Of a stretch of 64,000 bases of DNA, positions 3,157 through 18,740 are shown one piece after another (positions within the stretch are counted from its first letter, which is position 1; the number at the start of each line of letters is the position of its first letter). Location of the stretch: positions 4,157,001 to 4,221,000 of the forward strand of contig NZ_CP048796.1 in NCBI RefSeq assembly GCF_010748935.1, given 5' to 3'. Source of the DNA: Providencia vermicola (GTDB lineage: Bacteria; Pseudomonadota; Gammaproteobacteria; Enterobacterales; Enterobacteriaceae). The position numbers and the translations under genes were made by a program. The notes beneath the pieces are model-generated. The model was given only the letters and a program-made list of their open reading frames with translations, was not told the origin of the DNA and searched no databases.

Positions 3157-6100
3157 ATGGATAACCAAAAAGAGGCCGTATCTTTACCACAAGAAGAAAA
3201 AAATGAATCTGGTTTGTTAGCGTTTGTTTATGATATGGCAGATCCAAATCTCCCTGTTATGACACAATCTGTTGCCATTTCGGATTTAAGAAATAACACG
3301 ACGCCTTTAACGGCAAGGCCCTCTCAAAGCCAGTGGGTTTATGAGGGAGTACTCAATGTGCCACGGGATGGAAAATATCTCTTCATGGTTGATCAGCATA
3401 ACACACCGTTATCGCTTGAAATCAATCAGCAAAAAATCGACTTAAGCCAACAACAAATCGCTGATGGTATCACCGTCGACCATCTCAAATCAGGGGAACA
3501 ATACCCCATCCGATTTACCGCCATTACAGATGGCTTAGTGCCACAATTTCGCTTTTATTGGGATGCTGGGAATGGGTTTGAAGTGGTGCCCGACCATGTA
3601 CTTCACCACCCTCAGCATAGAGAAGCCTCTAATATAAACACAACACCTCTCGATCATCCGCAAAATGAAGCCATCAATACCATTATTGTGCATGAAGTTG
3701 AGCAAAAAAAACTACAGCTAGGCTATTACAAGAATCGTGGTCGTGTTGCGGTAATACGCGATGATTCGGCACTACTCGCTGCATTATCTCACCAAGGTCC
3801 AACCGATTCCAAGGTGGGCAATACGGCCTTTCAACTGATCAGTTGGTTAGCAGGAAAACCACGAATTGCTCATGAAAGCCGCAAAACTTACCTATTAAGT
3901 GCGGTCGATACCGAACAATTTTCTGGGTTTGATTTTCACACCAAACACAATCTATTTGTTGATAGCTTTAACTCGCCACACCATTGGCAAGATAACGACC
4001 ATCGAGCCGCAGAGCAACTAGCAGATGCCCTACTCCCCAGTGGTGAATGGCATCGCCATTATGACATCGTCGTATTACCAGCAAATGCGAATCAACAACA
4101 AGTGGCGTTAATCCGCCATTGGATGGAGCTGACTGGCGGCAGTGTTTTTATTTTACACAGCCCAACTCATCATGTTCCCAGCCTAGCCATTCAACAATTA
4201 ATCAGTGACATTCATCCTCAACAAAACCATGAAGAACATGTCACCATTCCAGCGGTCACCCTTAAGAGAAAGGGATTACAAGTGACCGTAAGTGACTGGG
4301 ATCCGCTGACTAACGAAACAACGCGAGTTGCAGAATATATGCTCTCTGCAAACTCAAATGATCCCCTACCTGCTCGTAGCCGACCAACTCAATGGCTATT
4401 TAGTGGTGTAGTCACGGCACCTGAAGATGGTGACTTATGGTTAACCAGCAGAGGTTCAGAGCCCTTCTCTTATCAAATAAACTCAGTCAGCCACATTCAG
4501 GACCCTGAAAGCAATCAAGTTCATAATATAAAATCAAGTGAAAGCTACCCTATTCAAGCCACAATAATGACGCAGGGGGAAGTGCCTCACTTCGCACTTT
4601 ATTGGCAATTAGCTTGTCATGGTGAAGACTATAAACCGGTTCCTGATGACGCCTTAGAGTATGACACCGCTGACGTTCAAGTGAGTTCAGACCCTATTCC
4701 GACAATAACCGAACCTTCATTAAGGCAATCTCATTATCAGCAAACCATTCAGTTGCCTTCAACATCAATAAATACGCTGAATTTAACGGAAGAAATGCTT
4801 GCTCAAACTGAGTACTTTTCACTCACGCTACACACGGCTGAAGCCACGACGCCCTTTATCTTAGAAGATATCCCTCTGTCATCTCACCCTTCATGGCAAT
4901 CATTAGTACAAGAAATAGAACAACACATTAATCAGCGGATCACCGACCACGTGGACACAATGGTATCCGTCAGATATCAAAATAATCATATTATTATTCA
5001 AGGTGATGATGTTTATTTTACTCAATTTCAACTGAAACAAAATCGACCAACCGCCCATATATCCATCAATCCCACACACATAGCATCGACAGAGGATGAA
5101 AATGGCACGACACACACCTTCAAACTGTATGCGAATAGCCTGAAAGAATTAACACATCTTTCTTTATCACTGGCAGGCGAAACGGACAAGCGTGTACATT
5201 TGCTAAAGAGTGAATTTAAATCGCCTGACTTACCGATCACATCATCCGAGCAATTTGTTGCACAATTACAGCATTATCTACGGTCCCAAGCGCAGACCCA
5301 ATCGCTGCATGTAAGCTATGATGAAAATCAGCAGGTGCTATCTCTCTTCGACCCATTAAAGCGTTCCCTTGAAAACTTCAATTTGGGTTTGCAACATCAG
5401 ACATTGCCTTTTGTTATCGCTGAAAATCATAGAGAAGAAGCCGCCTCTTTGGTCATCGGAGCAATAACGGGAAAATTGCCTACTCACCCAGATGTTATTG
5501 AATACCGTTTACTTGAGGAGCCAACATTTGGCAAGGTCAGACTCAACCATCAAACAGGTGAATGGCTCTATCAGGCAAATAGCGATAGCCCTTTTTCAGG
5601 GAGCGATCAATTTGACTTTATGGCCATTTTGAAAAATGGCCAATATTCCGCCCCCATGTCGATTCAACTACAATCAGACGATGCCCCTGTGACAAACTAC
5701 CCGGGGAAAAGAGTCTTTACACTACCTGATCCGATCTACCATGAGCCTGCTGCGCGTGGCAATCACGTACCGGTAGATATGCAAGTTCACACCATCCAGC
5801 TCGCACAGACCCATTTACAAAGCCCCGATGCCCCCTATTTCGTACTCACGGCCAATCGTTGGGCATTATTAAAAGTTGATATCACAAGCCCATCCTCCGC
5901 GAATGCGCCAGACATTACCGCAGTCGTGATGGATAAAGATGACCAAGAAATTGGGCGAATTCGTTTAACTGGACCAGAAAATTTACCTCAGCAATTACCT
6001 GTTATTCCAAATACGCCAACCATAAAAAGCCATGAGCTGCATCAGCAGAGTTATACGGCTCCGCTTCAAGGTCAATGGATACAACCGGGTATGAAATTGC

Positions 6101-8208
6101 AATTATTGGTAGGTGATACCCCGGTGGTGATGCCGTACACCGATCACCACGGTATCTTTACTCCCCAAATTAGCACAAGCAATGACATGGTTTCGCGTGT
6201 CACGAACCATAGCCTTTATCGTCATGGACAAGGTGTTTATGCCTATTCCCCCCTGAGCTGGGGGATGGAAGCCGCAGCCAAGCTGCCCACTAACGCATTT
6301 ACCTTATATAGTTACCCAGCTTTGTCGCAGTTTTTACCTCTCGAGCCACAAATCACACATCGCGCAGCACTTTTTATGCCGACCTATGATAGGTTAAGCG
6401 GCCTTTATCCTCATCACAGCGAACAAATTTCTTGGGGTTCCCATCGCAGCATCGAAACCAGTCGAACAAATGGACTTGATAGTGACTTTAATTACTATTC
6501 ACTGACTCCGACAGGCGTGAGTAGCCTACTTGGCTTAGCATGGAAAAACCAAGGTAGTGGTGTCGCTTATGCCAATGTCATGTGGCACGAAGTGTATGGA
6601 CATGGATTTGGTCTGCACCATACTACGGAGCCTAGCACGGCTTACCCATTTGATAAGAAACACAACGGCTTCAACATCGCATTTGACCAACAGGCACAGT
6701 CATATATGACTTACAAGTACATCAATGCGTATACAGGCCAAGTGGCTGAAGTGTTGCCTATGTTATATCCTTACCTAAGTGATGCAGGCCATGATATTTT
6801 TAATGCATTCACTTCCCACTCCGATTATTTTACTCAGCGTATACAACAATTTCTGAGACAAAAATTACGCTGGCAGCCAAACGCTCTAGAAGGTGAAGAT
6901 ATTGAAGATCATGGTTTCGCTGGTGACGGTTATTATCAGCGTTGGTCAGATAATAGTCATCAATGGGAGACACTCACGGAAGATAATTTCGCGCAGTTTT
7001 ACCCAACGAGTTCTCCCTATGAATTAGCCCATCAACGAGATGTCCCTGTCTATTGGATCAATGCTTCAATCTTAACCATGCCAAATGGTCAGCTTCACCC
7101 CTATAGCACGCTCAAGCCAATACGAACACGTGGTCACCTACCAGCGCCATACCATAATTTAATCACAGCAACAGGTCGGCCTTACAGTGACGACATGCAC
7201 TATGCACTTAAAGTGACCTACGCGACTCAATATGGTCTATTGACCGAACATCTACAAGCGGTCACGGACTTAACAACAATCAACCTCAATCTTCCTGACA
7301 AAGGGGAACTCGTCAAACTTGAATTAGCCAAAATCAATACCGATAAACAACTCGATAAGCCCATTTATACCTACAACAACCCCAATGCTTTGGCAAACCG
7401 CCTATTTAGCCAGTGGGATAGCACATCCCCGACTCCTCAGCTGACGCTCGATGACTATTGGCAAGGCAGTAAACTATTTTGGTCAGCAACAGACACCGCG
7501 TTGATTGATATGTCCACTGGAAAAATCGACAAACAGAAAATAACTCAAGACAGTGTGTTATGTGCTATTTGGGTGAAAGATGGGCAGCGGCAAAAACAAT
7601 ATTTTTCATTACGTGATCCGTGGGGAGAACATGCCTTACCTCACGGTGTGCACACATTTTCACCCATCAATCACTTAGAGCAGGTTATCGATAAATATGT
7701 AACGCCAATAGCTTATGATGTTGAATCAGAGAGTTTACTGCTGTCTGATGCCTATATTAATCAAACCGTGGATATCTCAGCGATGCAACTGCCAGAAGGA
7801 CAATACACTTATTGGCTAACCTTACTGCTGGATGATGGCTCAGGGCAAATTCAAGAGCAAGTTCCCCAAGAGCAATGGATGATATCACGACAGGGAGAGC
7901 AATTATCGATTATCGGCAATATCGACAGTACACCCAAATTAACTATCACAGGGCTTAAGGTTTATATCGATAGGCACTTACAAGACGATATTCATCCTAA
8001 TACATTAATATTAAACCAAAATACATCCATACCGCTCAGTGAGAATACTCAGTGGCTAGATTACAATCGGCCCGTTGTTTTTAATCAGCGAGATCAACAC
8101 ATTGATTTGATTGCTGCGATGGATAACACACCGCTGCATATGCGTGTAGAAAACGACACACTGTGGTCAGCTAGCACCAAGAATTTTTCTGCGCCTTTAA
8201 CTCTCTAA
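3157..8208 (+). CDS. Very large M66 (StcE/TagA)-like metalloprotease with PA14-like repeats
   Basis: A 1683-residue protein. Residues about 10-150 and 375-510 are two related beta-rich modules (each with SQWVYEG or TQWLFSG, then FRFYWD or FALYWQ) resembling PA14/GLEYA carbohydrate-binding domains. About 755-845 is a cadherin/Ig-like module (VRLNHQTGEWLYQ). Residues about 880-1400 resemble peptidase M66, the family of the mucin protease StcE and Vibrio TagA. The putative zinc site is HEVYGHGFGLHH at 1144-1155. Its second part fits the family H-x2-G-x2-H pattern, but there are three residues, not two, between the Glu and the next His. No Sec signal peptide is visible at the N-terminus (polar MDNQKEAVSL), although StcE is exported. 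AACGGAGATAGG precedes the ATG. It is a single-gene unit with hairpins on both sides. Function by homology is mucin or glycoprotein cleavage; activity and export route are open. Confidence 0.72.
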   Translation: MDNQKEAVSLPQEEKNESGLLAFVYDMADPNLPVMTQSVAISDLRNNTTPLTARPSQSQWVYEGVLNVPRDGKYLFMVDQHNTPLSLEINQQKIDLSQQQIADGITVDHLKSGEQYPIRFTAITDGLVPQFRFYWDAGNGFEVVPDHVLHHPQHREASNINTTPLDHPQNEAINTIIVHEVEQKKLQLGYYKNRGRVAVIRDDSALLAALSHQGPTDSKVGNTAFQLISWLAGKPRIAHESRKTYLLSAVDTEQFSGFDFHTKHNLFVDSFNSPHHWQDNDHRAAEQLADALLPSGEWHRHYDIVVLPANANQQQVALIRHWMELTGGSVFILHSPTHHVPSLAIQQLISDIHPQQNHEEHVTIPAVTLKRKGLQVTVSDWDPLTNETTRVAEYMLSANSNDPLPARSRPTQWLFSGVVTAPEDGDLWLTSRGSEPFSYQINSVSHIQDPESNQVHNIKSSESYPIQATIMTQGEVPHFALYWQLACHGEDYKPVPDDALEYDTADVQVSSDPIPTITEPSLRQSHYQQTIQLPSTSINTLNLTEEMLAQTEYFSLTLHTAEATTPFILEDIPLSSHPSWQSLVQEIEQHINQRITDHVDTMVSVRYQNNHIIIQGDDVYFTQFQLKQNRPTAHISINPTHIASTEDENGTTHTFKLYANSLKELTHLSLSLAGETDKRVHLLKSEFKSPDLPITSSEQFVAQLQHYLRSQAQTQSLHVSYDENQQVLSLFDPLKRSLENFNLGLQHQTLPFVIAENHREEAASLVIGAITGKLPTHPDVIEYRLLEEPTFGKVRLNHQTGEWLYQANSDSPFSGSDQFDFMAILKNGQYSAPMSIQLQSDDAPVTNYPGKRVFTLPDPIYHEPAARGNHVPVDMQVHTIQLAQTHLQSPDAPYFVLTANRWALLKVDITSPSSANAPDITAVVMDKDDQEIGRIRLTGPENLPQQLPVIPNTPTIKSHELHQQSYTAPLQGQWIQPGMKLQLLVGDTPVVMPYTDHHGIFTPQISTSNDMVSRVTNHSLYRHGQGVYAYSPLSWGMEAAAKLPTNAFTLYSYPALSQFLPLEPQITHRAALFMPTYDRLSGLYPHHSEQISWGSHRSIETSRTNGLDSDFNYYSLTPTGVSSLLGLAWKNQGSGVAYANVMWHEVYGHGFGLHHTTEPSTAYPFDKKHNGFNIAFDQQAQSYMTYKYINAYTGQVAEVLPMLYPYLSDAGHDIFNAFTSHSDYFTQRIQQFLRQKLRWQPNALEGEDIEDHGFAGDGYYQRWSDNSHQWETLTEDNFAQFYPTSSPYELAHQRDVPVYWINASILTMPNGQLHPYSTLKPIRTRGHLPAPYHNLITATGRPYSDDMHYALKVTYATQYGLLTEHLQAVTDLTTINLNLPDKGELVKLELAKINTDKQLDKPIYTYNNPNALANRLFSQWDSTSPTPQLTLDDYWQGSKLFWSATDTALIDMSTGKIDKQKITQDSVLCAIWVKDGQRQKQYFSLRDPWGEHALPHGVHTFSPINHLEQVIDKYVTPIAYDVESESLLLSDAYINQTVDISAMQLPEGQYTYWLTLLLDDGSGQIQEQVPQEQWMISRQGEQLSIIGNIDSTPKLTITGLKVYIDRHLQDDIHPNTLILNQNTSIPLSENTQWLDYNRPVVFNQRDQHIDLIAAMDNTPLHMRVENDTLWSASTKNFSAPLTL

Positions 8209-11824: not shown

Positions 11825-12649
<825 letters not shown>

Positions 12650-12698: not shown

Positions 12699-13117
12699 TT
12701 TGCTGCCATAATAAAAGAATAATAACGCTAATAAAAAACAATATATTTCCACAATAAAGAAAATTCATTTTATTTATGTGAGTCACAAAAACAAAAACTC
12801 CCTAAAATAAATTATTCCTTTTCGCATTTTATCATCCCTAGAAAAATAAACTATAAATCATCAATATGATTTATTACTTATCCCACTAATAATCTTAAAT
12901 ATTCCTTTCATACCTCTTATCAAGAATACTCGACAAGGCGACTTTTTTTACATTAAATTCACATTGGCTTCGACCTTAAATTATTTACACGTTTTAAAAA
13001 AATGAATGTTAACGATAAATAACACCTTACTGTTAAATAAAAAATGATAACGGCTATTCGTCATCAACATTGCATTATTAATTTTCATCAAATAAAGCAT
13101 TCACGATAAGGATGATT
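12699..13117. other. Long A+T-rich leader before the first KdgM-type porin
   Basis: About 420 bp, very A+T-rich, no gene. It carries an 11-base palindrome TGTGAGTCACA at 12777-12787; this looks like two CRP half-sites but with one spacer base instead of six, so it is not a normal CRP site. A half-site TCACATT lies near 12960. No KdgR-like operator (AAATGAAAC.. type) was seen. The porin promoter must be here. Confidence 0.4.
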
Positions 13118-14065
13118 ATGGAATATTTTAAAGGTTTAATTCTAAGCACAGTCATAATATTACCAACAACCGCTTTTTCCCAAGCCAGTAATGATTATTG
13201 GCATGTAGACACAGATGTTTATGTCGAAGTTGAAGAGTACCAAGGTCAACGAGACAGCTTTAATAACAAAGTATTCGACAAAGTCAGCATGGTAGGTAAG
13301 CTTGCACTGACTAACCCGCAATCATTATGGGGCTTTTATTTCGAACATCGTGAGTCATTAAAAAATTATGGGCATGACTTTTCGAGTTCCCGTGACTCCT
13401 CTATCCGTAATCGAACTCAAATTGGCGCGACCCGCCAGCTCTACCGAAGTGCGGTTGCAGCATTCAGTCTAAATGGAAGTTACCGAAAAGAATCCAATGA
13501 TTCCGCACCAAATACCACCGCGCTTTCATCCAATAGCTTATATTGGTTAATGCCAGCAGGTAGCATTCAAATTAATAAAAAATGGTCTTTTGATTTTTGG
13601 GATGCGCTCTATTACTACAGTAACTTTTTAGCATCAAACTACTATGAGTGGGAAGCTGAACACGGCGTCACTTACAAACACTCGAATGCCGTTACAGCAA
13701 AATTCACTTTATATAACGATAGAGTGTGGGATAAAGATTTCAATCAAGTTTTTGCACGGGATCAAATAAGAGGCTACTTCCCTATTAAGATCAGTGAAAA
13801 ATGGGCGATTACGCCTTATTTTCGCTATTTTTTGAATGACAGCAGTTATGATGGCCAGAAAAATTTAACTCAACGGATCAAAAACGGCTATCGTATTGGA
13901 ACACAAATCGCTTATAACGTGACCCCCAAATTAACACTCTGGGGTGGCGCAGCGATTGAAGCGACACAGTGGAAATACCCCATAAACAATCATATGACAT
14001 CAGGAAGGAGTCATAGTCAAACCTACTACTTGGGGCAAATTGGTATCAAATACTCTTGGCAATAA
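13118..14065 (+). CDS. KdgM/NanC-family oligosaccharide porin (copy 1)
   Basis: Outer-membrane channel of 315 residues in the KdgM family, small 12-strand monomeric barrels that admit acidic or amino-sugar oligosaccharides (KdgM: oligogalacturonate; NanC: sialic acid). It has a signal peptide (hydrophobic 5-17, cleavage near AFS-Q), alternating beta-strand patterns rich in Tyr/Trp/Arg, and a final strand ending YSWQ, an aromatic-containing C-terminus as in outer-membrane barrels. ATG 13118 is preferred over ATG 13112 because AAGGA overlaps the latter. It is longer than KdgM (about 235). The second porin in the window is clearly a paralog (shared RNRTQIGATR, YRKESNDSAP and WDKDFN). Its substrate is unknown, but the glycosidase next door suggests GlcNAc-type oligosaccharides. 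Confidence 0.83.
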   Translation: MEYFKGLILSTVIILPTTAFSQASNDYWHVDTDVYVEVEEYQGQRDSFNNKVFDKVSMVGKLALTNPQSLWGFYFEHRESLKNYGHDFSSSRDSSIRNRTQIGATRQLYRSAVAAFSLNGSYRKESNDSAPNTTALSSNSLYWLMPAGSIQINKKWSFDFWDALYYYSNFLASNYYEWEAEHGVTYKHSNAVTAKFTLYNDRVWDKDFNQVFARDQIRGYFPIKISEKWAITPYFRYFLNDSSYDGQKNLTQRIKNGYRIGTQIAYNVTPKLTLWGGAAIEATQWKYPINNHMTSGRSHSQTYYLGQIGIKYSWQ

Positions 14066-14098
14066 TAAGCGGAACACAACACTTTATTTTAAAAGATA

Positions 14099-14133
14099 AA
14101 AAAGTCGTAATAACAGTAATACGGCTTTTTTAT
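14099..14133 (+). terminator. Terminator after porin copy 1
   Basis: AAAAAGTCGTA pairs with TACGGCTTTTT (one G-T pair), with a T-run. The porin is therefore transcribed separately from the glycosidase gene. Confidence 0.82.
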
Positions 14134-14267
14134 TAAACGCTATATTTTATATTAAAATTAATAATTAAAACATTTTTTACACATTAATCAGAATAAAAAT
14201 TCAGTTTCAATTAATAGTTTAGATAATTAAATCTTTTCACGCAATTCACAGCCTAGATCACATAAGG

Positions 14268-14292
14268 GAATAATTCCAAAGTGGAATTATTC
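14268..14292. promoter_or_regulatory. Perfect 10+5+10 inverted repeat, probable operator of the glycosidase gene
   Basis: GAATAATTCC (14268-14277), spacer AAAGT, GGAATTATTC (14283-14292), a perfect palindrome in an otherwise gene-free leader. Size and A+T-rich arms recall NagC-type (ROK repressor) sites, but it matches no operator consensus I can name. It lies about 190 bp before the glycosidase start and about 128 bp upstream of the CRP site centre: upstream of the predicted core promoter. Confidence 0.55.
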
Positions 14293-14409
14293 TATAGAAA
14301 TATTAAGTATTCCACAAAATTAATCAAACAAAATCAATGCACTACTTAATATAGCACAATTTGTTAAATCGATAACTATTCTTCTTTCATAACAAATAAG
14401 AATAATCTT

Positions 14410-14431
14410 ATCTGTGATTTATCTCACTTTA
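14410..14431 (+). promoter_or_regulatory. CRP (cAMP receptor protein) site of the glycosidase promoter
   Basis: TGTGA-TTTATC-TCACT (14413-14428) matches the CRP consensus TGTGA-N6-TCACA in nine of ten conserved bases. A TATTAT at 14450-14455 would give a start near 14462, placing the site at about -41.5, the class II activator position. An overlapping TATAAT at 14430-14435 is another possible -10. Confidence 0.7.
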
Positions 14432-14484
14432 TAATTAATTAACCCTACTTATTATTCATCGAAAAATAACTTAGGAATAACTCG

Positions 14485-16365
14485 ATGAAAAATCTGACTC
14501 TACTTTCCCTCTGTTTATTGAGCGCCGTGTCGTTGGCTGAACCTATTTCACAAGCACAGCTTGATACTTTGTGGAAAAACAAACAAAAATCTGCTGAAGA
14601 AATTGTCAATAATATGTCTGAAGCCGAAAAAATTGGCCAACTATTTATGTTGGACTTCAGATATTGGAATCAGGATAGCAAAGGCGAGCCAGCTCCATTT
14701 CTGGTCATGAACGAGGAAGTTTCTAAAGTAATTAATCAATACCACTTAGGTTCTGTCATCTTGTTTCGTGAAAATTTAATTGATACCCCCCAAACGGTGG
14801 AATTAATTAACCAGCTACAAGCTTCCCGTAGTAATTTGCCACTCTTTATTGGTACTGACCAAGAAGGCGGCTATGTCACTCGCCTTCGTGTCGGAACCGA
14901 AATGCCCGGTAATATGGCCTTAGGCGCGACCCGTAATCCAGCTCTCGCAGAGCTAACCGGCATGATCCATGGCTATGAATTATCCAGCCTCGGCTTTAAT
15001 ATCAACTTTGGCCCTGTTGTCGATGTGAATAACAATCAAAATAACCCTGTCATTGGTGTGCGCTCCTATTCGGATAATAAAGAGCTGGTCGAACAGCTTT
15101 CGACCAATTACATCAAAGGCATCCATAAATACAATTTATTGACCTCACTAAAACACTTCCCTGGGCATGGTAATGTTTCCTCTGACTCTCACGTAGACTT
15201 ACCTGTCGTGAATTCAAATGAACAAGAGTGGCGCTCTACAGAGTTACCGCCCTTCCAGTATGCACTCAACCATGGCGCAGACGCAGTAATGACGGCGCAC
15301 ATCATTGTGCCTGCCCTCGATAACAGCAAGATCAAAACGCTAACAGGGAAAGAGGTGGGAACACCCGCTACGCTGTCAAAACCTATCCTACACGGCATTT
15401 TACGTGATGAGCTAAATTATGATGGCCTCATCATCACTGACGCCATGGATATGGGAGCGATTGCGGATAATTTTGATATGAATTGGGCTGTAGAAACCTC
15501 TTTATTAGCAGGCTCGGATATCATCCTTATGCCAATCAAAATGTGGGACAGCGAATCAATTACTCGTCTAGACAATATGTATCGCTATCTTGAAAGTGAG
15601 GCTAAGAAAAACCCTGAATTACAAAAACGTATTGATGAGTCGGCTAAACGCGTCATACTGAAAAAATTACAGCAAGAGATCACCGCTCAACCGGTTGATT
15701 TAAAAAATGCTCAACAGATTGTCGCCTCTAAAGGCCATAAAGATCTGGAGAATATGGTTTCAGAGCAAGCGATTACGGTGATCAAAAATGATCATGTTCT
15801 GCCTTATATCTTGAAACCACAAAATAGAATACTCGTCATTTCCGATGAAAAACCACGTAATGAATTAATTCAAAAACACTTAAATGCTATTGCTAATGAA
15901 ACGGGTGTCACTATTGATAGCCAAGAAATCGTGATCAAATTAGCGGAAAACACCCTCACTGAAAAAGATATTAAACCTCGATTAAAAAACCAAGATCTGA
16001 TCTTATTGACCACCTATAACTTAAAAGATAATCCAACTAACGCTCAGATAATCATTGATGAAGCGAATAAAGCAAATATTCCGCTCGTCGTTATTTCCTC
16101 TCGTAACCCTTACGATATCGCCTATTTGAAAGACGTTAAAGCTAACATCGCTATCTACGGCATTACTGGATTTGATATTACGAATAATAACCGTAATTCA
16201 CTGGAAACGAATATTCGTAGTGGATTACGCACATTATTTGCAGACCAACAGACACAACCTTTGAATATGCCTAAGGGGCAACTGCCGGTCAATATCAAGA
16301 ACCCTCAAGGGGATAAAATCCTGTTTCCTTATGGTTACGGTGAAACCTACAACACAACACATTAA
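14485..16365 (+). CDS. Periplasmic NagZ-like GH3 beta-N-acetylhexosaminidase
   Basis: Family 3 glycoside hydrolase of 626 residues. A signal peptide (1-18, cleavage SLA-E) sends it to the periplasm, unlike cytoplasmic enterobacterial NagZ (about 340 residues). The TIM-barrel carries the NagZ signature KHFPGHGNVSSDSH at 223-236, giving the His/Asp pair used by GlcNAc-releasing members, and the nucleophile Asp319 in IITDAMDM. Residues about 410-626 form the GH3 C-terminal domain, so it resembles Bacillus YbbD/NagZ in layout. The probable reaction is removal of terminal beta-GlcNAc from chito- or muropeptide-type oligosaccharides. It sits between two KdgM-type porins, which could deliver the substrate. 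CRP control is likely. Family is firm; substrate is inferred. Confidence 0.87.
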   Translation: MKNLTLLSLCLLSAVSLAEPISQAQLDTLWKNKQKSAEEIVNNMSEAEKIGQLFMLDFRYWNQDSKGEPAPFLVMNEEVSKVINQYHLGSVILFRENLIDTPQTVELINQLQASRSNLPLFIGTDQEGGYVTRLRVGTEMPGNMALGATRNPALAELTGMIHGYELSSLGFNINFGPVVDVNNNQNNPVIGVRSYSDNKELVEQLSTNYIKGIHKYNLLTSLKHFPGHGNVSSDSHVDLPVVNSNEQEWRSTELPPFQYALNHGADAVMTAHIIVPALDNSKIKTLTGKEVGTPATLSKPILHGILRDELNYDGLIITDAMDMGAIADNFDMNWAVETSLLAGSDIILMPIKMWDSESITRLDNMYRYLESEAKKNPELQKRIDESAKRVILKKLQQEITAQPVDLKNAQQIVASKGHKDLENMVSEQAITVIKNDHVLPYILKPQNRILVISDEKPRNELIQKHLNAIANETGVTIDSQEIVIKLAENTLTEKDIKPRLKNQDLILLTTYNLKDNPTNAQIIIDEANKANIPLVVISSRNPYDIAYLKDVKANIAIYGITGFDITNNNRNSLETNIRSGLRTLFADQQTQPLNMPKGQLPVNIKNPQGDKILFPYGYGETYNTTH

Positions 16366-16388
16366 CGCCTATTTTCACTCTGTACTTT

Positions 16389-16424
16389 CCAGCCTCTATA
16401 TCTCCATCGGAAATATAAGGCTGG
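16389..16424 (+). terminator. Hairpin between glycosidase and porin copy 2
   Basis: CCAGCCT/AGGCTGG with an inner TATAT/ATATA pairing and a short loop. No strong T-run follows (GTTATT), so it may reduce rather than stop read-through or protect the upstream message; porin 2 begins 127 bp after the glycosidase stop. Confidence 0.55.
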
Positions 16425-16491
16425 TTATTACACCTCAACAAAAACAAACACTGCTACCTCATAAACAATAATTAAAAATTAAAGGATCATC

Positions 16492-17448
16492 ATGAAAATA
16501 TCATTGAATGGTTTACTCTTTCTCTCTGTTACTAGCCTTGCTACCCCAGTATTAGCGGCTGAGCCTATAAATAACGACTACTGGCGAATTACGTCTAACG
16601 TTTATATGGAATTAGAAAAATTTGAAGGTCACCATAATACCAGTGGCGGCAAGGTATATGACAAAACAACGATGATAGGCCAGCTCTTCTTATCAAACCC
16701 TGAATCTAAATGGAGCTTCTTTCTTGAACACAAAGAGTCTTTAAGAAGCTATAACCATAATTTCTCTACATCAAAAGACTCTTTTATTCGTAACCGTACC
16801 CAAATTGGGGCAACACGTAAAATGTATTCGAGCGATGTAGGGCAATTCAACCTAAACGTGACCTACCGAAAAGAATCAAATGACTCGGCTCCCGGAACGA
16901 TGGCGCGTCCATCGAACACACTATTTTGGTTGATGCCTAGCGGGACTTATAATTTCAACGATAAGTGGGCATTTAATTTCTGGGATGCGTTTTACCACTA
17001 CGATAATTTCCACGCCCCCAATAGTTATGAGTGGGAATCCGAGCACGGTATCGTCTACAAGGTGAATGATTCGGCAACCGCTAAACTCTATATGTACACC
17101 GACTGGACATGGGATAAAGACTTCAATAAAACATGGGAACAAAACCAAATCCGTGGCTACTTCCCAGTTACCCTAAACCAAGAATGGAGTATTATGCCGT
17201 ACTTCCGCTATTACCTAAATGAGCACAATTACGACAGCAACCAACGTACGACCCAGAAAGTGAAAGAGGGTTACCGAGTTGGCACACAAGTTTTCTATAA
17301 TTTAACCCCCAAAATCACATTATGGGGTGGATTCGCTGTTGAACCGAGTACTTGGGAAAATCCGAAAGGTGCCGGCATTACCTCTGGTAGTCATAACCGC
17401 CAAACATTCTACTTAGGCCAATTAGGCGTGAAATACGTCTGGCAATAA
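16492..17448 (+). CDS. KdgM/NanC-family oligosaccharide porin (copy 2)
   Basis: Outer-membrane channel of 318 residues, paralogous to the porin gene 3.4 kb upstream: same length, same order of strands, same C-terminal WQ ending, and repeated blocks such as NRTQIGATR, VTYRKESNDSAPG, WDAFYHY and QIRGYFP. Signal peptide 1-22 (cleavage near VLA-A). AAAGGATCATC before the ATG is a good ribosome site. It probably shares transcription with the glycosidase gene. Two divergent channels around one enzyme suggest different substrate sizes or charges rather than simple gene dosage. Confidence 0.83.
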   Translation: MKISLNGLLFLSVTSLATPVLAAEPINNDYWRITSNVYMELEKFEGHHNTSGGKVYDKTTMIGQLFLSNPESKWSFFLEHKESLRSYNHNFSTSKDSFIRNRTQIGATRKMYSSDVGQFNLNVTYRKESNDSAPGTMARPSNTLFWLMPSGTYNFNDKWAFNFWDAFYHYDNFHAPNSYEWESEHGIVYKVNDSATAKLYMYTDWTWDKDFNKTWEQNQIRGYFPVTLNQEWSIMPYFRYYLNEHNYDSNQRTTQKVKEGYRVGTQVFYNLTPKITLWGGFAVEPSTWENPKGAGITSGSHNRQTFYLGQLGVKYVWQ

Positions 17449-17612: not shown

Positions 17613-18614
17613 TTAGGGGCGGCGACTAATCTCATCAAAAACGCCCCCATTGGCAAAATGCGTAGATTGCGCTTGAGTCCAACCGCCAAACACATCATCA
17701 ACCGTCAATAGTTTCAGTTTAGGAAAGCGTTGCTGATATTTTTTAGCGACATCCGCATCACGGGGTCGATAATAATTTTTAGCGGCTATTTCTTGCCCTT
17801 CAGGGGAGTATAAATACTCCAAATAGGCTTGTGCGACTTCTCGGCGGTCACGTTTATCGACGGTTTTATCAACCACAGCCACAGTAGGCTCAGCTAAAAT
17901 AGAGATGCTAGGCGTCACAATTTCAAATTCACCATTTTCACCAAGCTCATTAATCGCTAATAACGCCTCGTTTTCCCACGCAATTAATACATCTCCAATT
18001 CCACGTTCCACAAAGCTATTTGTTGCGCCGCGAGCACCAGAATCTAACACCTCAACATTTTGATAGAGTTGTTTAACAAATTGTTTGGCTTTCTCTGGGT
18101 CATGATGATTTTTTTCCAAAGCATATCCCCAAGCCCCAAGATAATTCCAACGCGCTCCGCCTGAGGTTTTGGGATTCGGCGTCACAATCGCAACATCTTG
18201 ACGGATCAAATCATCCCAATCTTGGATATTTTTAGGATTGCCTTTACGGACAAGAAAGACAATTGTTGAAGTGTAAGGTGCGGAATTATCGGGGAGCCGT
18301 TTTATCCAATTTTTATCAATGCGCCCGCTGTCCGCTATGGCATCAACATCATAAGCTAACGCTAGCGTGACGACATCGGCTTCCAAGCCATTAATGACAG
18401 ATGTTGCTTGTTTACCTGAACCACCATGAGACTGACGAATGGTTACCGTATCCCCAGTTTTTCCTTGCCAATACTGGCTAAAAGCTTGGTTATATTGCTG
18501 GTAAAATTCCCGAGTCGGATCATAAGAAACATTTAATAATTGAATGTTTTTCGCCCATGCTCCCGTCGTCAGTATTAATAACAATGCCGTTGCTGACTGC
18601 CATTTTCGTGCCAT
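17613..18614 (-). CDS. sbp: Periplasmic sulfate-binding protein Sbp
   Basis: Substrate-binding protein that captures sulfate and hands it to the CysTWA ABC importer. It has a signal peptide ([21 protein letters not shown]) and the family motifs [14 protein letters not shown] and [16 protein letters not shown] in the N-terminal lobe, where main-chain groups and Ser bind sulfate. I preferred ATG 18614 (333 residues) because GAGG lies nine bases upstream; ATG 18629 would add five. It is monocistronic next to pfkA, as in E. coli. CysB control is expected from the family but I saw no clear site. Confidence 0.95.
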
Positions 18615-18740
18615 TCTTCCATACCTCATTCATTTAAATGTTAAGGCAGGCTGACAGATTTCATAGATAACATGAAATAATTAAAAATGACAATTTATGC
18701 AACAAAAGAATATACCGTGAATTCGATGAGAGAGAACAAA

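What the first reader, a model, noticed from the sequence alone, without database searches (positions are those of the whole stretch)
13118..17448. Porin-glycosidase-porin oligosaccharide uptake locus
Seen: two clearly paralogous KdgM-type porins flank a signal-peptide-bearing NagZ-like GH3 enzyme. Known: KdgM and NanC admit charged or amino-sugar oligomers; NagZ-type GH3 removes GlcNAc. Inference: a scavenging system for GlcNAc-containing oligosaccharides (chitin, host glycan or peptidoglycan pieces) with periplasmic trimming. I know of no described system with this order.
Basis: partly seen in the sequence, partly recalled or inferred. Interest (0 to 1): 0.72.

Follow-up and report, generated by a model that had tools for sequence, protein, structure and literature searches.

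The report
Porin-and-enzyme peptidoglycan fragment salvage locus
A Providencia chromosome carries two outer-membrane pore genes around an enzyme gene that most likely let the cell take in and trim fragments of bacterial cell wall as food; relatives of the same genes in other bacteria sit inside the known operon for eating the cell-wall sugar MurNAc.

Summary
The three genes are real: porin 13112-14065, signal-peptide GH3 14485-16365, porin 16492-17448, + strand, in a Providencia chromosome. Two corrections. The porins are OmpG-type, not KdgM-type (profile matches PDB OmpG at E 6e-14; model with 14 strands). The GH3 is the two-domain NagZ of Bacillus subtilis type, not the one-domain cytoplasmic NagZ. 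Of 12 GH3 orthologue loci held from outside Providencia, 12 have an adjacent porin, 10 murR, 9 murQ plus murP, 5 NamZ and 2 a GHL10 hydrolase. A GH3-only search of 295 genomes of the order gave six strong matches outside Providencia; all six are mur-linked and porin-linked. MurR-type boxes precede GH3 in four loci. In Providencia the genes lie apart from murQP and lack that box, but 12 of 12 genomes with this GH3 carry a CRP-like site before it. Best reading: catabolite-controlled uptake of GlcNAc-MurNAc fragments, periplasmic removal of GlcNAc, and MurNAc import by MurP: a diderm variant of the B. subtilis MurNAc cluster. The porins' substrate is inferred, not shown.

The parts
13112..14065 (+). 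porin 1, OmpG-like, 317 aa, signal peptide by eye; fast-evolving paralogue of porin 2
   Evidence: ORF; 53% identical to porin 2; sister clade to porin 2 inside Providencia; 54-73% identity among four Providencia against 88-93% for porin 2 (printed before that script failed)
14485..16365 (+). exported two-domain GH3 beta-N-acetylglucosaminidase, B. subtilis NagZ (YbbD) type, 626 aa
   Evidence: PF00933; PDB 3bmx E 1.7e-119 over residues 28-623; D234, H236 and D319, aligned with 3bmx D232, H234 and D318, are invariant in 14 of 14 sequences
16492..17448 (+). porin 2, OmpG-like, 318 aa, signal peptide by eye; the conserved partner downstream of the GH3
   Evidence: profile against PDB OmpG E 6.4e-14; AlphaFold pLDDT 84, 14 strands; adjacent to GH3 in 12 of 12 genus genomes with this GH3
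14413..14428 (+). CRP-like site TGTGATTTATCTCACT, 72 bp before the GH3 start
   Evidence: present with at most 1 mismatch at -67 to -74 in 12 of 12 Providencia upstreams of this GH3, exact in 8, one mismatch (as here) in 4
14450..14455 (+). possible -10 element TATTAT, placed so that the CRP site would centre near -41.5 (class II)
   Evidence: sequence; TATTAT at this place in 6 of 8 upstreams aligned; inference, no mapped start
14288..14404 (+). TATTC(C/T) half-sites at about -197, -177 and -108 and inverted at -86; possible repressor sites, not the canonical MurR box
   Evidence: about -197, -108 and -86 in 12 of 12 upstreams, about -177 in 10 of 12; function unknown
14095..14134 (+). hairpin with T run after porin 1, probable terminator that would make porin 1 a separate unit from GH3-porin 2
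   Evidence: read by eye; not listed by the pattern scan

Best explanation
The locus is the outer-membrane and periplasmic half of a pathway for eating peptidoglycan sugars. OmpG-type porins let muro-oligosaccharides (above all GlcNAc-MurNAc, the lysozyme or muramidase product) through the outer membrane. The exported two-domain NagZ-type GH3 removes the non-reducing GlcNAc in the periplasm. The freed MurNAc is imported and phosphorylated by MurP and turned by MurQ into GlcNAc-6-phosphate; the GlcNAc goes through the GlcNAc PTS (its genes were not looked for). GH3-porin 2 is switched on by cAMP-CRP, as murQP is in Vibrio cholerae. Shown here: the genes, families, conserved residues, linkage to mur genes in other taxa, MurR-type boxes before GH3 in four loci, the CRP-like site, and a murR-murQP operon elsewhere in this genome. 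Inferred: substrate, porin selectivity, periplasmic place of the enzyme, regulation.
For: Of 12 GH3 orthologue loci held from outside Providencia (52-62% identical), 10 have murR, 9 murQ and murP, 5 NamZ, 2 a GHL10 hydrolase (families confirmed for representatives). A GH3-only search of 295 genomes of the order gave six non-Providencia matches above 890 bits; all six are in mur neighbourhoods with a porin, while three weaker GH3s (33-40% identical) with 16-17 kb examined show neither. The GHL10 protein of one Serratia locus matches C. difficile Cwp19 (E 4.5e-85; species recalled), and DigH of E. coli, recalled as a GHL10 member, degrades denuded glycans (PMC12288456, passages). GGAAT-N5-ATTCC is upstream of murQ in 24 of 24 Providencia and exactly so before GH3 in 4 of 4 of L034-L037, with only 8, 3 and 12 sites in the three of these genomes that were counted. 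CRP-like site in 12 of 12; V. cholerae murQP has a CRP site at -41.5 (PMC10328515, passages). The same gene set without the porin is the B. subtilis murQ-murR-murP-amiE-nagZ-ybbC cluster (PMC5061867, passages; ybbC = namZ is recalled). This genome has murR and murQ-murP.
Against: In Providencia the GH3 and porins lie apart from murQP (about 0.48 Mb if the contig is circular; positions), and the MurR-type box (at most 1 mismatch) is absent from all 10 Providencia GH3 upstreams scanned, as well as from those of L033, L038, L075, L112 and L113. The box itself is assigned to MurR by place only; outside Providencia it is exact before murQ in 3 of 10 regions, one mismatch off in 5 and two off in 2. 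The CRP-like site was not found before GH3 in L033-L038 or L075. NamZ is missing in 21 of 24 Providencia. A porin of the porin 1 kind persists without the GH3 in 10 of 24 genomes, so it has some use of its own. The two Serratia loci lack mur genes in the 16-17 kb held. Proteus mirabilis, a relative, has a mur-like operon yet did not grow on MurNAc (PMC13289894, passages). I know of no enzyme or transport data for these proteins.
Confidence: 0.73

Rival explanations
1. The same proteins serve recovery of the cell's own wall fragments that escape into the medium or periplasm, not scavenging of foreign peptidoglycan.
For: Mur genes are discussed as recycling genes in the passages seen (PMC5061867; PMC10328515); an exported NagZ would act on any periplasmic GlcNAc-MurNAc.
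Against: Own turnover products in Gram-negatives are mostly anhydro-muropeptides taken up by AmpG and trimmed by cytoplasmic NagZ (recalled), for which this genome has a second GH3 of 349 aa; an outer-membrane pore and a CRP-like site suit uptake of food better.
Confidence: 0.2
2. A chito-oligosaccharide or host N-glycan scavenging locus: porins admit chitobiose or GlcNAc-tipped glycans and the GH3 cuts off GlcNAc.
For: NagZ-type GH3 enzymes can cut chito-oligomers to some degree (recalled); PDB relatives include GH3 glucosaminidases named for GlcNAc (6k5j, 4zm6).
Against: No chitinase, chitoporin, sialidase or mannosidase was recognised beside any orthologue, though the neighbours were not searched family by family; the closest solved relatives are YbbD/NagZ and the neighbours are mur genes.
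Confidence: 0.08
3. The porins are unspecific OmpG-like channels used for various sugars under catabolite control; their neighbourhood to the GH3 is a matter of shared regulation only.
For: E. coli ompG lies at the end of a sugar gene run (ycjM to ycjU, two pseudogenes, ompG) and is recalled as an unspecific pore; a porin 1-like gene stands without the GH3 in 10 of 24 genomes.
Against: Two porin types, distantly related (hhalign probability 97%), occupy the same place after the GH3 in mur clusters, which suggests selection for a pore for this substrate.
Confidence: 0.25

Closest known systems
B. subtilis murQ-murR-murP-amiE-nagZ-ybbC(namZ) MurNAc recovery cluster
   Same: MurQ, MurP, MurR, exported two-domain NagZ and, in five loci, NamZ are found together in relatives; the window GH3 is of the same NagZ type
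   Different: an outer-membrane porin stands in the cluster; no AmiE-like gene was recognised, though none was searched for; in Providencia nagZ and porins lie apart from murQP, and NamZ is absent in 21 of 24
E. coli murR / murQ-murP-yfeW divergon
   Same: homologous murR, murQ and murP; similar box half-sites with 32 bp spacing
   Different: no exported NagZ or porin beside it in E. coli K-12
E. coli OmpG
   Same: family and predicted 14-strand barrel; both lie in sugar loci
   Different: remote in sequence; other operon; the substrate proposed here is peptidoglycan sugars
KdgM/NanC oligosaccharide porins
   Same: small outer-membrane channels near sugar genes (recalled)
   Different: no sequence match found and 14 instead of 12 strands
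Tannerella forsythia MurNAc scavenging
   Same: a diderm that depends on external MurNAc; its extracts release GlcNAc-MurNAc from peptidoglycan (PMC7670621, abstract start, passages)
   Different: MurP is absent and AmpG is the transporter studied in that paper; no OmpG-type porin was mentioned in the passages seen

Membership tests
KdgM/NanC porins | sequence match to the KdgM family or its solved members | tested here: not met
   KdgM not among the 7 Pfam families matched by 18 porins at E<=1; no KdgM/NanC chain at E<=1 with the profile
KdgM/NanC porins | 12-strand barrel (recalled) | tested here: not met
   14 strands in the AlphaFold model of porin 2, pLDDT 84
OmpG porins | sequence match to OmpG | tested here: met
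   profile of 18 against PDB OmpG E 6.4e-14; Pfam Porin_OmpG matched in 11 of 18 members at E<=1, but not in the window's porin 1 (E<=0.001) or porin 2 alone
OmpG porins | 14-strand barrel (recalled) | tested here: met
   comparison of folds was not possible
Two-domain NagZ (BsNagZ type) | full-length match over both domains with catalytic Asp-His pair and Asp nucleophile | tested here: met
   residues 28-623 against 3bmx; D234, H236, D319 invariant in 14 of 14; roles of the residues recalled
Two-domain NagZ (BsNagZ type) | release of GlcNAc from GlcNAc-MurNAc | not testable with these tools
   needs an enzyme assay
One-domain NagZ (NF003740) | score above the curated cut-off | tested here: not met
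   185.7 against 207 bits
MurNAc catabolic cluster | murQ and murP in the same neighbourhood | tested here: not met
   not in the window; met in 9 of 12 orthologue loci elsewhere; murQ-murP present elsewhere in this genome
MurR regulon | MurR-type box upstream (assigned by its place before murQ) | tested here: not met
   0 of 10 Providencia GH3 upstreams at <=1 mismatch; exact in 4 of 4 of L034-L037, one mismatch in L114 and L115, none in L033, L038, L075, L112, L113; the short GH3 upstream of L032 was not scanned with this pattern

The most novel reading that the evidence does not exclude
A portable operon module (exported NagZ plus a dedicated outer-membrane porin, often with NamZ) equips some Gram-negative gammaproteobacteria to feed on peptidoglycan of other bacteria; its OmpG-like and 361-aa porins would be the first outer-membrane channels assigned to muro-oligosaccharides, as far as my searches go. 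In Providencia a plasmid form (GH3, 361-aa porin, NamZ) and a chromosomal form (porin, GH3, porin) both exist.
Probability: 0.45. Interest if true: 0.74.

Novelty: new variant of a known kind. Interest (0 to 1): 0.57.

Why it matters
None of the passages seen here names an outer-membrane channel by which peptidoglycan fragments from outside enter Gram-negative bacteria. A porin linked to NagZ, NamZ and the MurNAc PTS makes that question directly testable, proposes a function for a porin now annotated 'hypothetical protein', and suggests that some enterobacteria can feed on wall debris. It also means that 'NagZ' calls in enterobacteria can cover two enzymes, a cytoplasmic one tied to beta-lactamase induction (recalled) and an exported, probably catabolic one.

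Tried and rejected
KdgM/NanC membership: rejected. Chitin or host-glycan locus: no supporting neighbour recognised, kept only as a rival. A shared MurR-type box in Providencia: sought by eye, by pattern and over 10 GH3 upstreams; a tempting palindrome near 14268 in the window is largely shared only by L028 and does not have the murQ box's spacing. Surface-loop diversification of porin 1: its divergence is not confined to loops (pair identity 0.60 in strands, 0.58 and 0.48 between strands), so rejected. Two-domain GH3 in a class sample of 369 genomes: at E<=1e-120 only the own genome and three distant ones (36-38% identical), without a porin in the 4.6 kb held. Of the ten weaker GH3 matches in the order sample (344 to 632 bits) only three were looked at. 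Of 18 plasmid records with a GH3 match only the two Providencia ones were looked at. A third porin of this kind in the own genome: none at E<=0.001. NCBIfam did not name the NamZ; Pfam did. Literature: ten searches gave no paper that joins OmpG with NagZ or with peptidoglycan, GlcNAc and uptake; the one paper with NagZ, KdgM and porin was seen in the listing only. No paper was read whole. The library lacks most subscription journals; the source papers on NamZ, on the MurR operator and on B. subtilis NagZ were not seen.
Full report
WHAT IS THERE. The window lies in a Providencia chromosome (relatives of the locus by name: P. stuartii, P. rettgeri, P. heimbachae, P. alcalifaciens; porin 2 is 95% identical to that of P. 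stuartii NCTC11800). Between an ORF at 11879-12649 that reads as tpiA (by eye) and a convergent substrate-binding-protein gene (17613-18629, -) lie three + strand genes: porin 1 (13112-14065), GH3 (14485-16365) and porin 2 (16492-17448). The porins are paralogues, 53% identical; no third one is in the genome at E<=0.001. A hairpin with a T run after porin 1 (by eye) and a 419-base gap suggest two units: porin 1 alone, and GH3-porin 2.

THE ENZYME. It is GH3 (PF00933, E 1.4e-88). By sequence its nearest solved relatives are three chains of YbbD/NagZ (E 1.7e-119 to 4.1e-118; B. subtilis is recalled), then other GH3 glucosaminidases (6k5j, 3.1e-76), with one-domain NagZ chains far below (5g1m, 7.7e-33). 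D234 and H236 align with 3bmx D232 and H234, and D319 with D318, which the two other YbbD sequences show as Asn; all three are invariant in 14 of 14 orthologues aligned. That these are the catalytic residues is recalled. The N-terminus looks like an ordinary signal peptide; in L034-L037 it looks like a lipoprotein signal (by eye). The genome has a second GH3 in a 349-aa frame, presumably the cytoplasmic NagZ.

THE PORINS. Porin 1 found no PDB relative by itself at E<=0.001. A profile of 18 porins finds seven OmpG sequences (E 6.4e-14 to 1.1e-12) and otherwise one chance-level ribosomal protein. Pfam's OmpG model is matched by 11 of 18 members at E<=1, and clearly by three distant members (2e-17 to 1.2e-20); the window's porin 2 matches only DUF2490, below its cut-off. 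The AlphaFold model of porin 2 (18 sequences, mean pLDDT 84.1, pTM 0.77) has 14 strands. KdgM is therefore rejected. In some relatives a different protein of about 361 aa takes the porin's place; it is homologous at profile level (hhalign probability 97.2%, E 4.3e-11, 249 columns) and has no convincing solved relative by sequence.

DISTRIBUTION. In an order sample the porin-2 query matched 3 of 295 genomes, own included, so it is rare. In the genus sample 22 of 24 genomes have a porin match. The GH3 search gave 15 of 24 at E<=1e-100: 12 genomes with scores above 1160 bits, all with porin 2 next to the GH3 (coordinates); G298, G310 and a second copy in G313 with the 361-aa-porin type; and G296 with a weaker GH3 (356 bits). 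Of the 12, 10 also have porin 1 (interrupted in G314). Ten genomes have a single porin 47-54% identical to porin 2 and no GH3 of this kind; in the four looked at (L120-L123) it groups with porin 1 and lies in the same slot between tpiA and the binding-protein gene; the other six were not looked at. G298 and G310 have no match to this porin. The porin tree puts porin 1 and porin 2 together within Providencia (97/96; porin 1 100/100; the porin 2 group 88/92), in line with a duplication in that lineage. The GH3 tree groups the window's GH3 with those of the 361-aa-porin type (96/96) rather than with those of other OmpG-like-porin loci, so porin and enzyme partners may have been exchanged; two very long branches in that tree call for care.

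THE NEIGHBOURHOOD ELSEWHERE. The table gives, for all 12 loci held from outside Providencia with a GH3 52-62% identical: L032 Psychromonas murR < > murQ-murP-GH3-porin-NamZ; L075 murQ-murP-GH3-porin < murR; L034 Cedecea, L035 uncultured Enterobacteriaceae and L037 Klebsiella sp. BIGb0407 GH3-porin, then murR < > murQ-murP; L036 Hafnia GH3-porin-murR (no murQ before the end of the contig held); L112, L113 murP-murQ < > murR-GH3-361aa porin-NamZ; L114, L115 murP-murQ < > murR, then NamZ-361aa porin-GH3 read from the other strand; L033, L038 Serratia GH3-porin-GHL10. So an adjacent porin in 12 of 12, murR in 10, murQ and murP in 9, NamZ in 5, GHL10 in 2. L032-L038 and L075 were first found with the porin as query, so their porin linkage is not independent; the mur linkage is. 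The GH3 search of the order sample (17 of 295 at E<=1e-100) had six non-Providencia matches above 890 bits: G217 (the Psychromonas locus), G278 (L075), G258, G198, G169, G221 (L112-L115), all six with porin and mur genes. Of the ten weaker ones (344 to 632 bits), three were looked at with 16-17 kb (L116, L118, L119; 33-40% identical): no porin, no mur gene; seven were not looked at. Family identities were confirmed for representatives: MurQ and MurP over their cut-offs in L032 and L034, MurR-like below the equivalog cut-off in L032, L034 and L004, NamZ_N/NamZ_C in L032, L073, L074 and GHL10 in L033, L038. GHL10 of L033 matches Cwp19.

REGULATION. GGAAT-N5-ATTCC lies 54 bp before murQ in the own genome and at about the same place in 24 of 24 Providencia; it is one of only two exact sites in the 4.43-Mb own genome. 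Outside Providencia the pattern before murQ is exact in 3 of 10 regions (L113-L115), one mismatch off in 5 (L032, L034, L035, L037, E. coli) and two off in 2 (L075, L112). The box is exact at -81 or -88 before GH3 in 4 of 4 of L034-L037, with a second, one-mismatch box 32 bp downstream; E. coli murR-murQ has weaker boxes with the same 32-bp step. The genomes of L034, L036 and L037 hold 8, 3 and 12 exact sites (reversed-pattern control 5, 9 and 3; the genome of L035 was not counted), so the pattern is not enriched overall, but a site in a given 400 bases is unlikely by chance. These four loci are closely related, so they are not four independent cases. L114 and L115 have a one-mismatch box before GH3. 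No such box (at most one mismatch) precedes GH3 in 10 of 10 Providencia upstreams, nor in L033, L038, L075, L112, L113. Instead 12 of 12 Providencia upstreams of the window's type of GH3 carry TGTGA-N6-TCACA (8 exact, 4 with one mismatch) at -67 to -74; similar one-mismatch sites precede GH3 in L112-L115 and L117, none in L033-L038 or L075, and none precedes porin 1 or porin 2 of the window. With the TATTAT at 14450 this would be a class-II CRP promoter (inference). In V. cholerae such a site at -41.5 activates murQP (PMC10328515, passages). Whether MurR controls the Providencia genes is open.

READING. A GlcNAc-removing enzyme in the periplasm, an outer-membrane channel and the MurNAc PTS together make sense for GlcNAc-MurNAc from lysozyme- or muramidase-cut peptidoglycan. 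B. subtilis uses such enzymes outside the cell (PMC5061867, passages); a diderm needs a pore as well. In S. aureus the physiological substrate of MurP is MurNAc-GlcNAc, which BsNagZ did not cut (PMC6262408, abstract and passages), so the orientation of the substrate must be tested. A caution: Proteus mirabilis has a mur-like operon but did not grow on MurNAc (PMC13289894, passages).

VERDICT. New variant of a known kind; interest 0.57.

Noticed in passing
window 13112-14065: Porin 1 evolves far faster than its neighbours: 54-73% identity among four Providencia against 88-93% (porin 2), 83-87% (GH3), 94-98% (tpiA), 80-92% (binding protein); divergence is not confined to loops.
   Followed up: partly
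window 14485-16365 and L073, L112-L115, L117: The window's GH3 groups with GH3s that have the 361-aa porin, yet its own partner is the OmpG-like porin: a possible exchange of porin partners.
   Followed up: partly
window 3157-8208: A 1683-aa ORF with only sub-threshold matches to Peptidase M66 and PA14 and 43-48% identical partial relatives at the same place in other Providencia.
   Followed up: no
L127 and L128 (Providencia plasmids): Plasmid-borne GH3, 361-aa porin and NamZ set near fimbrial genes and an lpxL gene; L073 and L117 also show usher-like and fimbria-like neighbours by eye.
   Followed up: partly
L033 and L038 (Serratia): A GHL10 protein of 700-711 aa with a lipoprotein-like start (by eye) directly follows GH3-porin; that of L033 is Cwp19-like.
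   Followed up: partly
L073, L074, L112-L115, L117: The 361-aa porin type has a charged, coiled-coil-like stretch after its signal peptide (by eye); of the two scanned, one has no Pfam match and one a weak DUF2490 match.
   Followed up: no
L074 (G310) and G314 porin 1: The GH3 of G310 and the porin 1 of G314 are interrupted; intact copies exist in relatives.
   Followed up: no
Genus sample: 19 of 24 Providencia genomes have a second MurQ-like gene over the cut-off at another place; its role was not looked at. The own genome has only one over the cut-off.
   Followed up: no
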